Source: Alphaproteobacteria bacterium casp-alpha2
GTDB taxonomy: Bacteria; Pseudomonadota; Alphaproteobacteria; Rhodospirillales; Casp-alpha2
Direction of reading: 5' to 3'
DNA: 33,556 bases
Assembly (NCBI GenBank): GCA_001510075.1
Contig: LFEN01000006.1
Coordinates: 1-33,556, forward strand
Shown here: one piece after another, positions 9,246-19,339 of the stretch
Numbering within the stretch: position 1 is the first letter of the stretch
Layout of the letters: each line of letters starts with the position of its first letter
Position numbers and translations under genes: made by a program
Notes under the pieces: generated by a model
What the model was told of the DNA's origin: nothing
Databases searched by the model: none
Seen by the model: the letters and a program-made list of their open reading frames with translations, nothing else

Positions 9246-11048
9246 TTATTCAGGTTCAGGGGTTGTCGCCGGGGGGCTTTCCGCAGGCGGGGTTTCTGTT
9301 TCAGGGGCGGGGCTTTCCGCCCCTTCGGCGATAGCGTCAGCAGTTTCATCCCATATCACTTCGTAAAGTACTACTTCTTCGCCGAATCCCTTCATTTCAA
9401 ACCCGCCCTGGTTGGTAAATTTGTAATTCTTGCCGGAACAAATGCCACGGATGATTGAGGAAACGAAAATTTGATCGGCGGAGGCCTTATCGACAATGCG
9501 GGCCGATAGCTGGACCACGGTGCCGAACAAATCATTATCTTCGGAAATGGGCTCGCCGGCATTGAGACCGATTTTCAGGTGCAGGGGCAAATCAGGGTGT
9601 TCTTGATTGTGCTTGGCGGTTTCTCGCTGCATTTCGATAGCGGCATCAACGCCGTCGGAAGTTTTATTGAACGACGCCATGATGCCGTCCCCGGTGTGCT
9701 TGATCTCTTTGCCGGCGTTGTTGCTGAGTGCTTCGCGGACGACCCGGTTGTGGGCACGCACAACCAACTGTGCGCCTTCGTCTCCCATTGTCTGGGTCAT
9801 CGCTGTCGATCCGGCGATATCCGTAAACAGCACGGTAATGGGGCCTGTCTGTTCTTCTCGTTGCTTGGGCTTATTCCATTCGGTGAGGGCGTTATCCAGC
9901 AGCCTGCCGCCGGAACCTTCATCGGTGAGATAAATATTGATGCTGTTACGTCCGCTCTGGAACATCTGCATGTAGCGCGCATCGGACATCAGGTATTCTT
10001 CGTAGCGCTCGGCGAAGGAGGCGGCATGAGACTTCTTGAAACCAAGCGACATGACGCTGTCGGCAAGGATTTTGGATTGCGACGCGGCATCCATTTTCCC
10101 CTGCTGGGAAAGGATTTCGCAGGCGCCCGCCATATACATGCTGAGGCCGAACTTGTTGAAGCTGTCCAGTTTATCCAAATCGGTTTGGCATCCTTCCATA
10201 GATTTTCCAAGAAAGTTAATCATATAGCCCCTAAGTTTCTCTGCAGTGGGGGATAGCTCGCCGGTCGCCGGCGGGGTTTCTTCCGGCGCCGTCTCTTCCG
10301 CGGGGGCCTCTTCTTTAGGCTCTTCGGCCAAGGTTTGTTCGCTGGGCTGAGGGGCTGGTTTGTTGGCCATGGCTCTTTGGGCCATCGCTTTCCTGGCTGC
10401 GGCTTCCTGGGCTGCCCGTCTCGCCGCGCTCTGTTTCGCCATCTGCGCCAACATTCCGAGAATCCACAGAACCAACCGATTTTGTTTCGATTTTTTGAGT
10501 TTTACGTCCTTCATAAAAATGCGGGACGATACGCCCACGGAGATAAGGAACGAAATGATGAAAGTGCCAATAAATAAATTGGTTTTGGCAGAGCCTACGA
10601 AGCGTACGCCAAGGAGCCTCTCTCCACTCAGGGCTTCCGAAATACCAAAGGCCAAAAGCCCGGATAAGGAGAGGCAGAACAGGACGATGAAAAAAAGGAT
10701 ACCGACAACACGCGTTAAAGACGACTCTTGGGGTTCGTTGCTTTTCTTTGCGGGCGCAGTTCGTTCTTGGCGGGCAGGTGTTTTTCCCCTCCGGCCAAGG
10801 TTCGTCGGGACCCTGCGTACCATGGGCTTTTCCTGGGCTTTCTTGAAAACGACTGTTTCGTTGAAAACGCCAGTTTCGTCATTGAGGGTTTCGCGGATGA
10901 CCTTGACCGCATCCAGATGCCTCAATTCGCTAATCTGCTTGGTGGCCTCGTTGATGGCCTCTTCCCTCTGGTCGCCGGGAAAGGTTTCGTGGATGGTCCA
11001 TTGTCCATCCTGCTGTACTTGAACTTCGTAACTAGAATGATCTGTCAT
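9246..11048 (-). CDS. Membrane-anchored class III adenylate/guanylate cyclase
   Basis: 600 aa; two TM segments; VLFTDIAGSTAMTQTMGDEGAQ...KHTGDGIMASF...DLFGTVVQLSARIVDKASADQIFVS cyclase signature. Confidence 0.9.
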   Translation of the reverse strand: MTDHSSYEVQVQQDGQWTIHETFPGDQREEAINEATKQISELRHLDAVKVIRETLNDETGVFNETVVFKKAQEKPMVRRVPTNLGRRGKTPARQERTAPAKKSNEPQESSLTRVVGILFFIVLFCLSLSGLLAFGISEALSGERLLGVRFVGSAKTNLFIGTFIISFLISVGVSSRIFMKDVKLKKSKQNRLVLWILGMLAQMAKQSAARRAAQEAAARKAMAQRAMANKPAPQPSEQTLAEEPKEEAPAEETAPEETPPATGELSPTAEKLRGYMINFLGKSMEGCQTDLDKLDSFNKFGLSMYMAGACEILSQQGKMDAASQSKILADSVMSLGFKKSHAASFAERYEEYLMSDARYMQMFQSGRNSINIYLTDEGSGGRLLDNALTEWNKPKQREEQTGPITVLFTDIAGSTAMTQTMGDEGAQLVVRAHNRVVREALSNNAGKEIKHTGDGIMASFNKTSDGVDAAIEMQRETAKHNQEHPDLPLHLKIGLNAGEPISEDNDLFGTVVQLSARIVDKASADQIFVSSIIRGICSGKNYKFTNQGGFEMKGFGEEVVLYEVIWDETADAIAEGAESPAPETETPPAESPPATTPEPE

Positions 11049-11245
11049 GGTTAATCAACGGATGCCATTTCACCATTTCCGAGCAGAAAACCCGCCCCAA
11101 AAACCCCATCAAGCCCCAAAGAGGCAATAAGCTCCTAAGGTTAAAACCCTTTTGGGACTTAAAAAACCAAAATCGGTATATTTTACAGGAAAACTAAGGA
11201 GACGTCTCCCAAGGCGCAAGAGAAGGGAGAACAGGGGGGAAAGGG

Positions 11246-13171
11246 TTATTCGCCGGGGTTCTGAATTTCGCCGTCGTCAGACCATAATACTTCATAAAGG
11301 GTGATTTCGTCGCCGAAACCTTTCATGGCAAACCCCCCCTGATTGGTAAATTTGTAATCTTTTCCGGCGCAAATTCCGCGGACGATTTCAGAAACGTAAA
11401 TTTCGTCGGCAGATGCCTTATCGACGATGCGGGCCGAAAGCTGCACCGTTGTCCCGAACAAGTCGTTGTCTTCAGCGATGGGCTCACCGGCATTGAGCCC
11501 GATTTTAAAATGCAGGGGGAGGTCCGGGTTTTGTTGGTTATGCAGCGCCGCTCCCCGCTGCATTTCGATGGCGGCGTCTACGCCGTCGGAAGTTTTGTTG
11601 AACGACGCCATGATGCCGTCGCCGGTGTGTTTGACTTCCTTTCCGGCGTTGTTGCTTAGCGCTTCGCGGACGATCCGATTGTGGGCTCGAACCACTTGCT
11701 GGGCCCCTGCATCACCCAGCGATTGGGTCATCGCCGTCGACCCGGCGATATCCGTAAACATCACGGTGATCGGGCCGGATTGCTCTTCCTGTTGCTTGGG
11801 CTTGTTCCATTGGGTAAGCGCATTATCCAACAGCCTTGGCGCGACGGTTTCATCCGTGAGAAAGATATTGATGGCGTTTCGCCCGGCCTGGAACATTTGC
11901 ATGTACCGGGCATCGGCCATCAGGTATTCCTCGTAGCGGTCAGCGAAAGATGCCGCATGGGACCGCTTGAAGCCCATGACCTGTACACAGTCGGACAAGA
12001 TTTTCGAGCGTGCCCGGATATCCATGTTTCTTTTTTGGGAAAGGATTTCGCAGGCCCCGGCGAGATACAAATTGACGCCGAACTTGTTGAAGTTATCCAT
12101 ATTCTTTTGGTCGGTCTGACTTCCCTCAAGGCCTGAACTGAGAAATTTCAACATGTAGGCTTTTTGCTTTTCATCCACCGGCGATAGGGGGTCGACCTCG
12201 GGGGGCTTTGCTTTTGCGTGGGTTTCGGCATCAAGGACGACGGCGCGTTTAGCCTCTTCCGGTTCCTTGCCTTTATTCAATTCGGCCTGAAGACGGTCTG
12301 TCGTGGCTGCGTTTTCGGTGGCCTTTTCTTCGTTGGTTATTTGCTCTACCCGAAATTCTTCAACCCCCTTCATGGCGGCTTCCAGATTGTCGAGCGTGTT
12401 TTCCTTTCCGCCTTCCATGGTTTCGGCGCTGGGCCCCGCCTGGGCGCCTTGCCCGTTTGGGGATTTTGCTGGTTGCGGCTGTTGCGGCTTTTGCTGGGCG
12501 GCTCTCGTGCGTGCCTTATCCGCAGCCTGCTTGGCGCGTTTTGCCGCTTTCATCTGTGGCGAGGATTGAAGCGTTTCACCGCGCATCACGGTGATGGACA
12601 TTATGAGGAGGCTGACCAGGAAGAAAACGACAAACACGGAAATGAGAAGGTTGGATTCCGCATTGCCGACGAAATTAACACCGAACAACCTTTTGCCGCC
12701 CACCAACTCATCAGCCAGGGCAGCAAAAACACCACCAATAATAAGGCTGAAAAGGACCACCAAAAGAAGCTTGACCATAACCACCGTCATGGTCGATTTT
12801 TTTTTCGGTGGCTTGATCCGGCCTCGGGCTTTCCGGCGCTTGGTGGCGGTATCTTCAAAATCGTCTTCATCATCCTGGGTAATCCAGGACGTGTCCTGGC
12901 TGGGGTTATGGCCCATGGATGCACTGGAAGATTTTTGGCCGCCGCCGCCGGATTTCAGGCCCGGGCTTTTGTAGATGATGAATTCGTTATGGAAGCCCTC
13001 ATCGGAGTCATAGACTTCCTTGATGACCTTGACGGCTTCGACGGTACTGAGATGGTCTAGCTGCTTTCCCTCATCGATGGCGGCATCTTTTTGATGGCTC
13101 TGGAAACGGGCGTGGATGCTCCATCGCCCGCTTTGCTGCACCTGAACCTCGTAATTTACTATTTCTGGCAT
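11246..13171 (-). CDS. Membrane-anchored class III adenylate/guanylate cyclase, paralog of the 9246-11048 product
   Basis: 641 aa; same architecture; VMFTDIAGSTAMTQSLGDAGAQ...KHTGDGIMASF...DLFGTTVQLSARIVDKASADEIYVS. Confidence 0.9.
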   Translation of the reverse strand: MPEIVNYEVQVQQSGRWSIHARFQSHQKDAAIDEGKQLDHLSTVEAVKVIKEVYDSDEGFHNEFIIYKSPGLKSGGGGQKSSSASMGHNPSQDTSWITQDDEDDFEDTATKRRKARGRIKPPKKKSTMTVVMVKLLLVVLFSLIIGGVFAALADELVGGKRLFGVNFVGNAESNLLISVFVVFFLVSLLIMSITVMRGETLQSSPQMKAAKRAKQAADKARTRAAQQKPQQPQPAKSPNGQGAQAGPSAETMEGGKENTLDNLEAAMKGVEEFRVEQITNEEKATENAATTDRLQAELNKGKEPEEAKRAVVLDAETHAKAKPPEVDPLSPVDEKQKAYMLKFLSSGLEGSQTDQKNMDNFNKFGVNLYLAGACEILSQKRNMDIRARSKILSDCVQVMGFKRSHAASFADRYEEYLMADARYMQMFQAGRNAINIFLTDETVAPRLLDNALTQWNKPKQQEEQSGPITVMFTDIAGSTAMTQSLGDAGAQQVVRAHNRIVREALSNNAGKEVKHTGDGIMASFNKTSDGVDAAIEMQRGAALHNQQNPDLPLHFKIGLNAGEPIAEDNDLFGTTVQLSARIVDKASADEIYVSEIVRGICAGKDYKFTNQGGFAMKGFGDEITLYEVLWSDDGEIQNPGE

Positions 13172-13773: not shown

Positions 13774-14979
13774 TCAAGGGGATTTAGAAAGGTTTTTGCT
13801 TTCATTGCTGGACTCAAGGGAGCGCAAGGCCCTAATCCCCAGAATAATGACAACACCCATTATCAGGACACCCGCAAAATAGGGCCAATCCCGGCCCATG
13901 GCGCCGAACAGAAACCCTGCCCAGGCAGGGCCGGTAAAGCGCGCCATTGTTGATGCTGAGCGGGTAACCCCCATGATGCCGCCTTGTTCGTGCTCGCCTA
14001 CTTGAAGGGAAATAAGGCTGCTCAGTGAAGGGGATATGATGGAAAAACCATACCCGGCGATAACCATCGCCACCACCAGAACCGGCACACTGGAACTGAA
14101 GGGAATCAACAACATCCCGATCGCCAGCGCCGACGCTCCTTGAATGATCAGTCTTGCTTCGCCGAAGCGTTTGGCCAAACGACCGACAAGTCCGCCCTGA
14201 ATAAGGGCACTCATCAATCCGACCATGGCGAACAGATAGCCGTTCTGTTCCGGTCCCCATCCGAATTGGCGCCTCGACCACATGGCGAAGGTGGATTCCA
14301 GTCCGGCAAAAACAAAGGTGGCGAGGAATGTTAACGCAATCAACAACCCGACATTGGGGCGTTTGACGGCTTCAGTGAACATTTCAAATCGCCTTTTCGG
14401 GGGCTCTTTCGACAGTCTGTTACGAATTTCCTCAGACAGGGATTCCTTCAGCATCACCACTGCAAAGCCCAGGGCGACAAATGAAAGACCGGCAGCGGCG
14501 AAAGCCGGGCTTTGGAAATCGGCATTGACCGGATCGGAACCGGCGAGAATTCCGCCGATAGCCGGTCCGGCGATAAATCCCAGCCCAAAAGCGGCTCCAA
14601 TCATCCCCATACCCTTGGCGCGGTTTTCCCGGGTGGTGACATCGGCAACATAGGCGAATGCGGCGGATATGTTTCCGGCCATGAAGCCACCGGCTGCCCG
14701 GGCCATAAACAACATCCAAAGGCTTTCCGAAAATCCCAACCATACATAGGAAAGCGCCGCACCGGCCAGGCTGACCAAGAGGACCGGGCGCCGGCCGATA
14801 CGATCGCTGAGCCGCCCCCAAAACGGCGCCGCCAGGAATTGAGTGAACGAATAGGTCGCCATTATCAGCCCGACCATAAAGGGCGTCGCCTGATAATGTT
14901 CGGCATAGAACGGCAGCAACGGAATGATGATACCGAAACCGATCAAATCAATGAGAACGATGAAAAACAGGATCACCAT
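13774..14979 (-). CDS. MFS transporter (TetA-like drug:H+ antiporter)
   Basis: 401 aa, about 12 TM; GRLSDRIGRRPVLLVSLAGAALSYV MFS motif A. Confidence 0.88.
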   Translation of the reverse strand: MVILFFIVLIDLIGFGIIIPLLPFYAEHYQATPFMVGLIMATYSFTQFLAAPFWGRLSDRIGRRPVLLVSLAGAALSYVWLGFSESLWMLFMARAAGGFMAGNISAAFAYVADVTTRENRAKGMGMIGAAFGLGFIAGPAIGGILAGSDPVNADFQSPAFAAAGLSFVALGFAVVMLKESLSEEIRNRLSKEPPKRRFEMFTEAVKRPNVGLLIALTFLATFVFAGLESTFAMWSRRQFGWGPEQNGYLFAMVGLMSALIQGGLVGRLAKRFGEARLIIQGASALAIGMLLIPFSSSVPVLVVAMVIAGYGFSIISPSLSSLISLQVGEHEQGGIMGVTRSASTMARFTGPAWAGFLFGAMGRDWPYFAGVLIMGVVIILGIRALRSLESSNESKNLSKSP

Positions 14980-15027
14980 AATCGGCGGAACTTCCCTTGT
15001 AACTGTATCTTGGTATAGGGGAATGGG

Positions 15028-16197
15028 TCAGCGCTGGGTTAATTTCAACTCAATTCGTCGGTTGCGCCGTTTTCCGATTTCATCGGAACGGTCGTCGAGG
15101 GGCTGAAATTCGCCGAACCCGGTGGCGGCCAGCCGGTTTGGTGGCAGGCCTTCCCCGATCAGTTGCTGAACGACCGAGATGGCTCGGGCAGAGGATAATT
15201 CCCAATTTGACGGGAAGCGGGCGGTCTTGATGGGGTCCTTGTCCGTGTGCCCGTCGACGCGCAGGACCCAATCGATGTCGCTGGGGATTTCGCCGGCAAT
15301 CTGTTTAAGAGTCTGCGCCAGCTTGGATAATTGTTTCTGACCGGCGACTCCCAGATCGGCCGAGCCTTTGGTGAAAAGGACTTCGGATTGAAAGACAAAG
15401 CGGTCGCCGACAATTCGAACGCCCTGTTGTTGTCCCAGTATGTCACGAAGTCTGCCGAAAAATTCGGAACGGTAGCGGCCTAATTGATGAACTTTGTTGG
15501 CCAAGGCCGCGTTCAGTCGCGAGCCGAGAGAGGCGATCTGGACCTTTTGGTCAATGGCCAGTTTTTCCGATATTTCCAGCGCCTTTGAAATTTTCGCCAA
15601 GGTCTCCCGAAGGGCACCCATCTGCTGGTTCAAAAGCGCCACTTGGGCGCGGGCGCTTTTGGAAATATCTTTCTCGGCCAACAGCTTTTTGCCGGACTGA
15701 TCCAATTTGCCGGCCATTTCGGCGACCTTGGCCTGCAATTCTTCCCTGAGCGCCCGAAGCGCCGCAATATCCTTCGCCAGGCCGGAAATCTCTTCCAACT
15801 GGGCAGTAATTTTCGATTTGTCCGCTTCGACGACTTGCAGGGTTTCGGCTAATTTTTTCTCCGTTTCCTCAGTACGCTGACGCAAGGTGGAAACGGTGGT
15901 TTTTAAATCATCGCGCAGCGCCACGGAAATTTGCAGTTCCTCCGACAATTGCTGGACGTTCTTGCTTAAATCCTTGTTGGCTTTGCGTTCAAGCGACAGA
16001 AGCTCGGCCAACTCGCCGACCTGATTTTGCAACCGTAACAGGGTCTGGTCACGGCCCGATAGCGCTTGGCTCAAGAAAAATTGTGCCAGCACGAAAATCA
16101 TCAGCAGGAACATGACGACCATCAGTAATGTCGCCAGGGCATCGACGAAACCGGGCCAGATGTTTGTCGGACGTTGGCGGCGGGAGAGGGCGGCCAT
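15028..16197 (-). CDS. MotB-like protein: N-terminal TM, coiled coil, C-terminal OmpA peptidoglycan-binding domain
   Basis: NIWPGFVDALATLLMVVMFLLMIFVLAQFFLSQALSGRD; long coiled coil; VDGHTDKDPIKTARFPSNWELSSARAISVVQQLIGEGLPPNRLAATGFGEFQPL. Confidence 0.88.
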   Translation of the reverse strand: MAALSRRQRPTNIWPGFVDALATLLMVVMFLLMIFVLAQFFLSQALSGRDQTLLRLQNQVGELAELLSLERKANKDLSKNVQQLSEELQISVALRDDLKTTVSTLRQRTEETEKKLAETLQVVEADKSKITAQLEEISGLAKDIAALRALREELQAKVAEMAGKLDQSGKKLLAEKDISKSARAQVALLNQQMGALRETLAKISKALEISEKLAIDQKVQIASLGSRLNAALANKVHQLGRYRSEFFGRLRDILGQQQGVRIVGDRFVFQSEVLFTKGSADLGVAGQKQLSKLAQTLKQIAGEIPSDIDWVLRVDGHTDKDPIKTARFPSNWELSSARAISVVQQLIGEGLPPNRLAATGFGEFQPLDDRSDEIGKRRNRRIELKLTQR

Positions 16198-16214
16198 GAT
16201 CCGGAGCCCCTGTT

Positions 16215-17369
16215 TTATTCGTTGCCTGAGGCGGCGATGGTGCGGGCGAGTAATTTGATCTCGCTGCGAAGCTGCTGGATTAATTCATTCCGCCCGGCGC
16301 TTAATTCTTCCGTCAAGCGGGTAAGATAAAGGTCAAGGTTGCGTATATGGTTGCGCGATCCTTCGTCCAGGCCACCCGTTTCAGCCCCGGCGGCGAGCTT
16401 CGCCAGTATGGGTTTCATTTCCATCTGCGATTCCGCCAACCCCTTCATCAGGGTTTGTTCGGTGCGCATGTGGTTGGTCAACAACTCCAGTTTCTCGCCC
16501 AGTGTCATAATGCTGTTGTTGACGGAAGCCCGGCTTTCTTCTCCTCCGGCGATGGTTTTTTGCAGGTTTTCGAGGCTTTCCGCTGTCTGCTCCAGAAGGG
16601 CCTGGACATAAGCAGGGATGGATTGGTCGGTTTCCGCCAGTGACGAACCCGTCGCCAGCCGGGTAACGGTGGAGAGCCATTCCTCCAGGTCGTTGTAAAA
16701 CCGGTTCTGCGCCTGGTTGGCTTGTAAATCCAGGAACCCAAGGACCAGGGAACCCGCCAACCCGAACAGGGATGAGGAAAATGCCGTTCCCATGCCGGCC
16801 ATGGGTGCCTGCAACCCTTTCTTTAATTCGCCGAATACGGCGGCGCCGTCGCCGCCGTCAACGCTTAAGCCCCCGATAACCTGGCTGATGGAGGATACGG
16901 TTTCCAGCAGTCCCCAGAACGTACCCAGAAGACCTAAAAAAATCAGCAAACCGATGGTGTAGCGTGAAAGGTCGCGAGATTCGTCGAGCCGGGAAACAAT
17001 GCCGTCGAGCAGGGAACGCATGCCCAGCGTCGACAGGCTGAGCCGGTCCCGGTCCCGGTGTTCGGCCATCATGGTGGCCATCGGCGCCAGCAACTTGGGC
17101 GGTTGGGCCTCGGATACGGAAATTGCCTCGGTGCGGAAATTTTCGATCCAGGAAACTTCCGGGTACAGCATCAACACTTGGCGGAAATTATAGATGATGC
17201 CGAGGAGCAGCACCCCGACGATCAGACCGTTAAGGGGGGCGTTGGCCAGAAAGGCATCTCTGAGCGTAAGGAATAAAAATCCGGACAGGCCAATGACCGC
17301 GACAACAAAGACAACCATCCGGATAAGATATTTACGTGGCCGGGTCATGGGCGGGGCTTCGGTAATCAT
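16215..17369 (-). CDS. MotA/TolQ/ExbB-type channel protein with C-terminal helical tail
   Basis: 384 aa; YTIGLLIFLGLLGTFWGLLETVSSISQVI...AGMGTAFSSSLFGLAGSLVLGFLDLQANQAQNRFYNDLEEWLS. Confidence 0.85.
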   Translation of the reverse strand: MITEAPPMTRPRKYLIRMVVFVVAVIGLSGFLFLTLRDAFLANAPLNGLIVGVLLLGIIYNFRQVLMLYPEVSWIENFRTEAISVSEAQPPKLLAPMATMMAEHRDRDRLSLSTLGMRSLLDGIVSRLDESRDLSRYTIGLLIFLGLLGTFWGLLETVSSISQVIGGLSVDGGDGAAVFGELKKGLQAPMAGMGTAFSSSLFGLAGSLVLGFLDLQANQAQNRFYNDLEEWLSTVTRLATGSSLAETDQSIPAYVQALLEQTAESLENLQKTIAGGEESRASVNNSIMTLGEKLELLTNHMRTEQTLMKGLAESQMEMKPILAKLAAGAETGGLDEGSRNHIRNLDLYLTRLTEELSAGRNELIQQLRSEIKLLARTIAASGNE

Positions 17370-18400
17370 CTTTCGGCGATGTTCACATCGACCCTGTTGA
17401 CAGGATCCTCCGTCGTTTTACTGCCCAAGGCACGGACATCAATGCGGGTGCTGCGTACGCCGCTTTCAATCAGGAACGAGCGGACGGATAGCGCACGCGA
17501 CAGGGACATGCGCCGGGCTTTGCTCGAAGAAAGGTCTTTTCCCCCGGCGTAAGCCAGCAGTTGCAGTCGGAGGTTGTCTTTGCCCTTGAGCTTCTTGGCC
17601 AATCCCAGCAAGTCGGGTTTGGCGTTATCGGGCAGCTTGGAGACCTTAGTGCCGAAAACGACCTGAAGCGCCCGGCCCTTTTTAAGCGTATCTTTTGCCG
17701 ACGGTAATGATGCCTGTTGTTTTTTCGCAGGGGCCGGTTTTGGAACAGAAACAGAGACAGTTTTATCCTTGGCCGGGGCCGCCGCAGGTGGTGGCGAGGG
17801 CGCCGCTTTCGGCGGGGCCGGTGGTGCAACCGGCGGCGTCGCCTTGGCCGTTTTTTCAGGCGTTTTCTTCGCCACCATCTTCGCCTTTTCAGGGGCCTTG
17901 GCTGGTTTTGCCGGTTCTTTCGGCACCGGGGGAGCCGGTGGTGCAGAGGCGGTCAACGGAGCCGGCGGCTTGCTGGCTGGAAGCGCCGGCTTGGCGGGCA
18001 TGGGCGGTTTAGGTTTCGCCGTGCGCACTTTTTTTCTGGCAACGCGCTTGGCCGGTTTTTTAGATTTTGTCCCAGGCGGCCTTAATTTGATCCTGCCGGT
18101 TTCTTCGGGGGCTGCGACATGAAGGCGTGATCGGGGAGGGGTAGCGCCTGGCAGGAGGAGACCCGAGCGTGGGGTGCTGAAACCGGGCGGGGTCCCATAC
18201 GTCAGTCCAGGTGATGGAACGGACCCTGCTTGATCAATGACGCTGAGATCGACATCCACGTTGTTGGTGCTTAGATCAACGCTTTGCGCTTCGGCAAAAG
18301 CCCAGGGAAGCGTTGTGACAATGACCGCGAGAAAAAAACGGCGCACCGGAACCTGATACATAGCAGCCAGGGTGTTCATGGTTTTGGAGTATCCCATCAA
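17366..18400 (-). CDS. Secreted Pro/Ala/Lys-rich protein with C-terminal OmpA-like domain
   Basis: Signal-peptide-like N-terminus (VRRFFLAVIVTTLPWAFAEA), low-complexity linker, C-terminal LRLQLLAYAGGKDLSSSKARRMSLSRALSVRSFLIESGVRSTRIDVRALG; 4-nt overlap with the MotA-like gene. Confidence 0.8.
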   Translation of the reverse strand: MMGYSKTMNTLAAMYQVPVRRFFLAVIVTTLPWAFAEAQSVDLSTNNVDVDLSVIDQAGSVPSPGLTYGTPPGFSTPRSGLLLPGATPPRSRLHVAAPEETGRIKLRPPGTKSKKPAKRVARKKVRTAKPKPPMPAKPALPASKPPAPLTASAPPAPPVPKEPAKPAKAPEKAKMVAKKTPEKTAKATPPVAPPAPPKAAPSPPPAAAPAKDKTVSVSVPKPAPAKKQQASLPSAKDTLKKGRALQVVFGTKVSKLPDNAKPDLLGLAKKLKGKDNLRLQLLAYAGGKDLSSSKARRMSLSRALSVRSFLIESGVRSTRIDVRALGSKTTEDPVNRVDVNIAER

Positions 18401-18532
18401 TGCTGAGGCCTTCTTGTCTGGCCGCCAGCCAATTCCCTCATATCTCTTGGCCTAACCATAACCAAGGAAAAGCCCACAAACAACTGGTTTGCAAGGTAAT
18501 AAAGAATGAGGAGGGATGATGAGAGAGGGCGG

Positions 18533-19339
18533 TTATTTTTCAGCCTGGGAAAGGATTTCCCTGAGCTTCACGTGCAGCAGATCGTTGGCGGCGACGATTT
18601 CGCCGCTTTGCATCATGCCGTTTCCACCCTTCAGGTCCGTAACGTAGCCGCCGGCTTCGCGTACCAGGATAATCCCGGCGGCCATATCCCAGGCTTCCAG
18701 GCCGGATTCCCAGAAACCCTCGTAGCGCCCGGCGGCGACATAGGCGAGATCAAGGGCGGCGGAACCAAAACGCCGTACCCCCGACGATACGTCCATAACA
18801 GCGCCCAGTTGCTTCAAAAAACGCTCGTGGTCGGTTTGCGGCCCGCGACCGGCAAAAGGGATGCCGGTGCAAAATAGCGATTCGGTTAATTCATGGCGCC
18901 CTGAAACCCTGATCCGGTGGTTGTTGAGGTGGGCACCCTGACCTTTTTCGGCGGTGAACATCTGATCGGTCAGGGGTTCGTAAACGACCCCGGCGGCCGG
19001 TTCGCCGTCCCGCTCCAAGGCAATCGATATCGAGAAGTGAGGAAGCCCGTGGAGAAAGTTGGTGGTGCCGTCCAGGGGATCTACAATCCAGCGATTTGAG
19101 GTGTCCGAGCCTTTGATTTCGCCACCTTCTTCAAGCAGAAAACCGAAGTTCGGGCGGGCTTTCGACAACTCGTAAACGATCGTTTTTTCAGCCTTTTTAT
19201 CGGCATTACTGACGAAATCCGCGGTCCCTTTTTTCGAAACCTGAAGGTGTTCGATTTCACCGAAATCACGGACCAGGCCCCGCGCTGCCTTTTGCGCGGC
19301 GATCGTCATAACGTTCAAAATTGCCGAGCGCTGTACCAT
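18533..19339 (-). CDS. suhB: Inositol monophosphatase family protein (SuhB-like)
   Basis: EEGGEIKGSDTSNRWIVDPLDGTTNFLHGLPHFSISIAL; GFWESGLEAWDMAAGIILVREAGGYVTD. Confidence 0.93.
   Translation of the reverse strand: MVQRSAILNVMTIAAQKAARGLVRDFGEIEHLQVSKKGTADFVSNADKKAEKTIVYELSKARPNFGFLLEEGGEIKGSDTSNRWIVDPLDGTTNFLHGLPHFSISIALERDGEPAAGVVYEPLTDQMFTAEKGQGAHLNNHRIRVSGRHELTESLFCTGIPFAGRGPQTDHERFLKQLGAVMDVSSGVRRFGSAALDLAYVAAGRYEGFWESGLEAWDMAAGIILVREAGGYVTDLKGGNGMMQSGEIVAANDLLHVKLREILSQAEK

What the first reader, a model, noticed from the sequence alone, without database searches (positions are those of the whole stretch)
9246..13171. Tandem membrane class III cyclases with a shared, unrecognised N-terminal domain and pre-catalytic helical domain
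Seen: two adjacent same-strand genes (600 and 641 aa) share four segments. These are (a) an N-terminal ~55 aa module (NYEVQVQQSGRWSIHARF.../SYEVQVQQDGQWTIHETF... followed by AVKVI(K/R)E); (b) two TM helices flanking a short conserved loop (GKRLFGVNFVGNAESNL / GERLLGVRFVGSAKTNL); (c) a conserved helical region (FNKFGxxxYxAGACEILSQ...SHAASFAxRYEEYLMxDARYMQMFQxGRNxINIxLTDE); (d) a class III cyclase domain. The linkers between TM and helical region differ greatly in sequence and length. I do not recognise (a) or (c) as a named sensor family. Inference: a recent duplication gave two cyclases with conserved input and output modules, possibly acting as a pair.
Basis: partly seen in the sequence, partly recalled or inferred. 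Interest (0 to 1): 0.62.

Follow-up and report, generated by a model that had tools for sequence, protein, structure and literature searches.

The report
Tandem membrane cyclases with unnamed domains
Two neighbouring genes make membrane-anchored enzymes predicted to produce the signal molecule cAMP, and they share two regulatory domains that match no catalogued family; the design is old and common in alphaproteobacteria, and in some relatives it is cut into two separate proteins, which makes its regulation testable.

Summary
ORF A (11246-13171, -, 641 aa) and ORF B (9246-11048, -, 600 aa) share an N-domain, a two-TM hairpin, a helical domain and a class III cyclase domain. The N-domain and helical domain match nothing in Pfam, NCBIfam or PDB sequences. 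AlphaFold models are confident (bbabb, pLDDT 92; six helices, pLDDT 91) and have no significant PDB fold match. All predicted catalytic residues of an adenylyl cyclase are present in both, except that the transition-state Asn is Gln (Gln in 102 of 108 relatives). The pair is a genus-level tandem duplication of a normally single gene in a locus conserved across the order (OmpA / MotA-ExbB-like / OmpA / MFS / cyclase / HSP20 / TrcR), so pairing is not essential to the design. The architecture is alphaproteobacteria-wide: helical domain in 38, N-domain in 92 of 289 genomes sampled. In seven loci, one clade, two adjacent genes divided at the extracytoplasmic loop encode it: N-domain+TM1, then TM2+helical+cyclase. 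That suggests the N-domain is a membrane-tethered cytosolic regulatory part. The N-domain also occurs alone and on a non-cyclase family. The signal is unknown. Verdict: a real, apparently undescribed variant of class III cyclase.

The parts
11246..13171 (-). ORF A, 641 aa: N-domain / linker / TM hairpin / linker / helical domain / class III cyclase
12962..13165 (-). ORF A N-domain (res 3-70), bbabb fold
   Evidence: AF2 pLDDT 91.8; profile A2 E 2.9e-34 (A's own N-domain is a row of A2); no Pfam match, no significant PDB fold match
12713..12769 (-). ORF A TM1 (res 135-153); net charge +7 in the 20 residues before it, consistent with N-terminus inside
   Evidence: hydropathy
12650..12712 (-). 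ORF A extracytoplasmic loop (res 154-174), the place where split relatives are divided
12593..12649 (-). ORF A TM2 (res 175-193), net charge +3 after it
11801..12178 (-). ORF A helical domain (res 332-457), six helices, ending in the conserved WNKPK just before the catalytic domain
   Evidence: AF2 pLDDT 90.6; no PDB fold match; W455 in 107 of 108 rows
11270..11782 (-). ORF A class III cyclase domain (res 464-634): D474, D518 (metal), K514, D570 (adenine), Q577 (in place of Asn), R581
   Evidence: PF00211 1.1e-14; PDB Ma1120 4wp3 1.7e-22; alignment
9246..11048 (-). ORF B, 600 aa, tandem paralogue with the same architecture
10836..11039 (-). ORF B N-domain
   Evidence: phmmer with A's N-domain 1.9e-14; profile A2 E 5.6e-28
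10527..10709 (-). ORF B TM1-loop-TM2 hairpin (res 114-174)
   Evidence: hydropathy
9870..10247 (-). ORF B helical domain (res 268-393)
   Evidence: phmmer with A's piece 2.1e-56; profiles A3/A5
9339..9851 (-). ORF B class III cyclase domain (res 400-570), full set of catalytic residues with the same Gln
   Evidence: PF00211 1.5e-14; alignment

Best explanation
A and B are tandem paralogues of an alphaproteobacterial family of membrane-anchored class III adenylyl cyclases. Predicted topology is N-in/C-in: a cytosolic bbabb N-domain, a flexible linker, a two-helix membrane hairpin with a short loop outside, a long linker, then a cytosolic six-helix domain that sits directly before a dimeric (homodimer, possibly A/B heterodimer) catalytic domain making cAMP from ATP. 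Proposed working: the N-domain is a membrane-tethered regulatory module that binds a cytosolic ligand or partner, and the six-helix domain with its WNKP end does the coupling job that HAMP or the cyclase transducer element does elsewhere. Shown by computation: domains, residues, charge pattern, distribution, split and fused forms, duplication. Inferred: adenylyl cyclase activity, dimerisation, regulation by the N-domain. Unknown: the signal.
For: All four segments shared at 1e-12 to 1e-97. In 108 relatives: metal Asp in 105 and 104, adenine Lys in 106 and Asp in 107, Arg in 106; Lys/Asp is the ATP-specifying pair in Ma1120, which is active with Ala at the Asn position (PMC4215837). 27 of 27 full-length relatives have two TMs, a loop of 16-28 residues, and mostly positive flanks on both cytoplasmic sides. 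Seven loci carry the protein as two adjacent same-strand genes divided in the loop, gaps of 37-107 bp, upstream gene always the N-domain one, one change on the tree, support 94/89: fused elsewhere, separate here, hence likely interacting. N-domain and helical domain together in one ORF in 85 ORFs of the loci examined. Two cNMP-binding proteins exist in this genome as possible cAMP receivers.
Against: No activity, dimer or ligand data. Gln instead of the transition-state Asn could lower or change activity. The N-domain occurs more widely than the helical domain (92 against 38 of 289), including 20 inspected loci with no related cyclase alongside, so it may not be a dedicated cyclase regulator. 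In one split locus (L140) the N-domain ORF shows no TM.
Confidence: 0.64

Rival explanations
1. The N-domain is a localisation or scaffold tag that parks the cyclase at an envelope complex (perhaps the neighbouring OmpA/MotA-ExbB-like module), and the cyclase is regulated through the membrane hairpin or the helical domain instead.
For: The cyclase gene sits next to an OmpA / MotA-ExbB-like / OmpA block in about 13 of 21 loci; the N-domain also occurs as small proteins, most with one C-terminal TM, and on non-cyclase proteins.
Against: The same architecture occurs outside that gene block (L038-L040, L042, L043; class-wide loci). Synteny alone does not show function.
Confidence: 0.22
2. A and B work as an obligate heterodimer with different input linkers.
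For: The pair is kept in at least five species of the genus; a second tandem pair is in G026 (L035). Degenerate paralogues exist in genomes that also hold intact ones (L073, L119).
Against: Both have complete active sites; single-copy orthologues are the rule in the family.
Confidence: 0.15
3. It is a guanylyl rather than adenylyl cyclase, as in the cGMP encystment pathway of Rhodospirillum centenum.
For: cGMP signalling is known in that order (PMC4681086); Ma1120 has residual guanylyl cyclase activity (PMC4215837).
Against: K514 and D570, almost invariant, specify adenine; guanylyl cyclases have Glu in place of the Lys.
Confidence: 0.08

Closest known systems
Ma1120 (Mycobacterium avium class III adenylyl cyclase, PDB 4wp3) and LipJ (PDB 1ybt)
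   Same: Closest solved cyclase domains (E 1.7e-22 and 1.3e-15); in Ma1120 Lys and Asp specify ATP and the canonical transition-state Asn is absent (Ala)
   Different: Gln at that position, two-TM anchor, and an N-domain and six-helix domain that match no solved chain
HAMP- or cyclase-transducer-element-coupled membrane class III cyclases (general knowledge; the transducer 'handle' helix is described in PMC7384201)
   Same: Membrane anchor or input part followed by a coupling element and a C-terminal cyclase
   Different: No HAMP or periplasmic sensor found; anchor is a two-helix hairpin with a loop of 16-28 aa; the coupling position holds a six-helix domain; the N-domain is on the cytosolic side
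Alphaproteobacterial plasmid cyclases annotated 'nickel-binding protein'
   Same: About 44% identity in the cyclase domain
   Different: The match covers the cyclase domain only (26-28% of the query)

Membership tests
Class III nucleotide cyclase (PF00211) | PF00211 match above curated cut-off | tested here: met
   54.9 and 54.5 bits against 21.9
Class III nucleotide cyclase (PF00211) | Two metal-binding Asp and the transition-state Arg | tested here: met
   D474, D518, R581 and equivalents in B
Class III nucleotide cyclase (PF00211) | Transition-state Asn (common, not strictly required) | tested here: not met
   Gln in 102 of 108; Ma1120 has Ala and is active, so this does not exclude membership
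Class III adenylyl (not guanylyl) cyclase | Lys/Asp adenine-specifying pair | tested here: met
   K514, D570
Class III adenylyl (not guanylyl) cyclase | cAMP production from ATP | not testable with these tools
   needs an enzyme assay
HAMP-coupled membrane cyclase | HAMP domain between TM and cyclase | tested here: not met
   No HAMP match in Pfam at E up to 1; a six-helix domain lies there
Any Pfam, NCBIfam or PDB family for the N-domain or helical domain | Significant sequence or fold match | tested here: not met
   best RbcS, E 0.044, TM 0.56; best E 1.9
R. centenum GcyA/GcyB/GcyC cGMP system | Homology to Gcy proteins | not tested
   Primary paper not held; no Gcy sequence was compared

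The most novel reading that the evidence does not exclude
The N-domain is a previously unnamed, alphaproteobacteria-wide signalling module whose membrane-tethered form controls class III cyclases through a membrane hairpin, and one clade has the same enzyme as a two-subunit membrane cyclase divided at the extracytoplasmic loop; the same module on other proteins would extend this control beyond cAMP.
Probability: 0.4. Interest if true: 0.68.

Novelty: new variant of a known kind. Interest (0 to 1): 0.52.

Why it matters
If right, a whole bacterial class uses a cyclase design whose input and coupling domains have no name. The naturally split relatives offer a ready two-protein test of how a membrane hairpin and a cytosolic domain control a class III cyclase, and two domain families could be added to the catalogues.

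Tried and rejected
A single-protein genome-contig scan found no relatives because of poor pattern choice; the helical-domain alignment worked. The phylum search first suggested the helical domain was restricted to the order; the class search with a deeper profile and direct inspection showed it is class-wide. The RbcS-like fold match of the N-domain was rejected as not significant. A link to R. centenum gcyA/B/C could not be tested: the primary paper is not held and no sequence was compared. Literature searches found no description of this architecture, within an open-licence library only. A Sinorhizobium paper found on the way uses adenylate cyclase only as a two-hybrid tool. Promoter-like hits near the genes are no more than shuffles give (3 against 4.3).

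Full report
What is there. ORFs A (11246-13171, -) and B (9246-11048, -) lie head to tail on the minus strand with 197 bp between them. They are 71% identical over the helical+cyclase part and 33% over the N-terminal part. Pfam and NCBIfam recognise only the cyclase domain.

Distribution. 40 of 41 genomes searched (own genome and relatives) have some match to A, many of them only through the cyclase domain. Twenty-seven proteins, the window's two included, align from end to end. A genome-contig scan with the helical domain returned 80 loci, nearly all labelled Rhodospirillales, Rhodospirillaceae or more broadly Alphaproteobacteria/Proteobacteria, including Magnetovibrio blakemorei, Roseospirillum parvum, Caenispirillum bisanense and Thalassospira profundimaris. 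Among 289 alphaproteobacterial genomes drawn evenly, the N-domain is in 92 and the helical domain in 38. In a phylum-wide sample 13 of 14 genomes with an N-domain match are alphaproteobacterial, and the other match is weak and partial. That the class is Alphaproteobacteria is inferred from these record titles and from the TrcR gene in the window.

Split forms. In seven loci (L140, L142, L143, L144, L145, L147, L149) the N-domain and the helical+cyclase part are separate adjacent genes, N-domain gene upstream, 37-107 bp apart. Of the five pairs whose TMs were computed, four have an N-domain protein that ends with one TM, and all five have a cyclase protein that begins with one; L140's N-domain ORF shows none. 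The seven form one side of a branch, support 94/89. The root is not known, so fission is likely but not proven over fusion.

Topology and catalysis. All 27 full-length proteins have two TMs separated by 16-28 residues, mostly with positive charge before TM1 and after TM2 and a near-neutral loop. This predicts that the N-domain and the C-terminal half are both cytosolic. Across 108 relatives the metal Asp residues, the adenine Lys/Asp and the Arg are almost invariant, and the usual transition-state Asn is Gln in 102. Ma1120, the nearest solved relative, has Ala there and is an active adenylyl cyclase; restoring Asn there drastically lowered its activity. A few relatives have lost catalytic residues (L073, L110, L119, L155).

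Structures. AlphaFold2 with 72- and 74-row alignments gives a bbabb N-domain (pLDDT 91.8) and a six-helix domain (pLDDT 90.6). Foldseek against the PDB gives no match at E <= 0.001 for either. The best for the N-domain is RbcS (E 0.044, TM 0.56); for the helical domain there is nothing (E 1.9, TM 0.22). Predicted cellular structures could not be searched.

The pair. The tree places A and B copies of the genus in one group (96/88), with B copies a clade (98/96), next to a single-copy relative G020. The duplication therefore precedes the genus's radiation. In G003 and G007 the order is B then A; in the window, G006 and G008 it is A then B (coordinates, assignment). The locus is conserved: IMPase, OmpA, MotA/ExbB-like, PRK09039 OmpA, MFS, cyclase(s), HSP20, thioesterase, ADH, TrcR (names).

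Interpretation. The safest reading is a membrane-anchored adenylyl cyclase family with two unnamed domains. The split forms argue that the N-domain+TM1 part and the TM2+catalytic part work together. The N-domain's wider occurrence argues that it is a general module rather than a cyclase-only sensor. No signal, activity or dimer has been shown.

Noticed in passing
L140, L142-L145, L147, L149: Cyclase encoded by two adjacent genes divided at the extracytoplasmic loop (N-domain part, then helical+cyclase part).
   Followed up: yes
L159-L178: Small proteins of about 130-170 aa made of the N-domain, most with a single C-terminal TM, in several loci next to a PAS_5 (PF07310) protein and in some near biotin carboxylase and AroQ-like genes; no related cyclase nearby.
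   Followed up: partly
L156:3879-5624, L157:2360-4123, L158:2621-3826: N-domain fused to a 330-500 aa non-cyclase region with no Pfam match; many further ORFs of similar size may be alike.
   Followed up: partly
window 13774-19339: Conserved neighbouring block: MFS, two OmpA-type proteins, MotA/ExbB-like protein, inositol monophosphatase.
   Followed up: partly
L073, L110, L119, L155: Relatives with degenerate catalytic motifs; L073 and L119 are in genomes that also hold an intact copy.
   Followed up: partly
G000:C7:23714-24223 (L001): Third class III cyclase of the genome, 454 aa, with an N-terminal hydrophobic region and the canonical Asn (DNVNIAAR); no N-domain or helical domain seen.
   Followed up: partly
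L068:3068-3625, L075:6399-6938, L079:6353-6895: Extra N-domain-only gene of about 180 aa directly upstream of a full-length cyclase.
   Followed up: no
L025, L028 against window, L024, L027: Order of the two tandem paralogues is swapped between species of the genus; one same-genus genome, 97% complete (G005), has no match at all.
   Followed up: no
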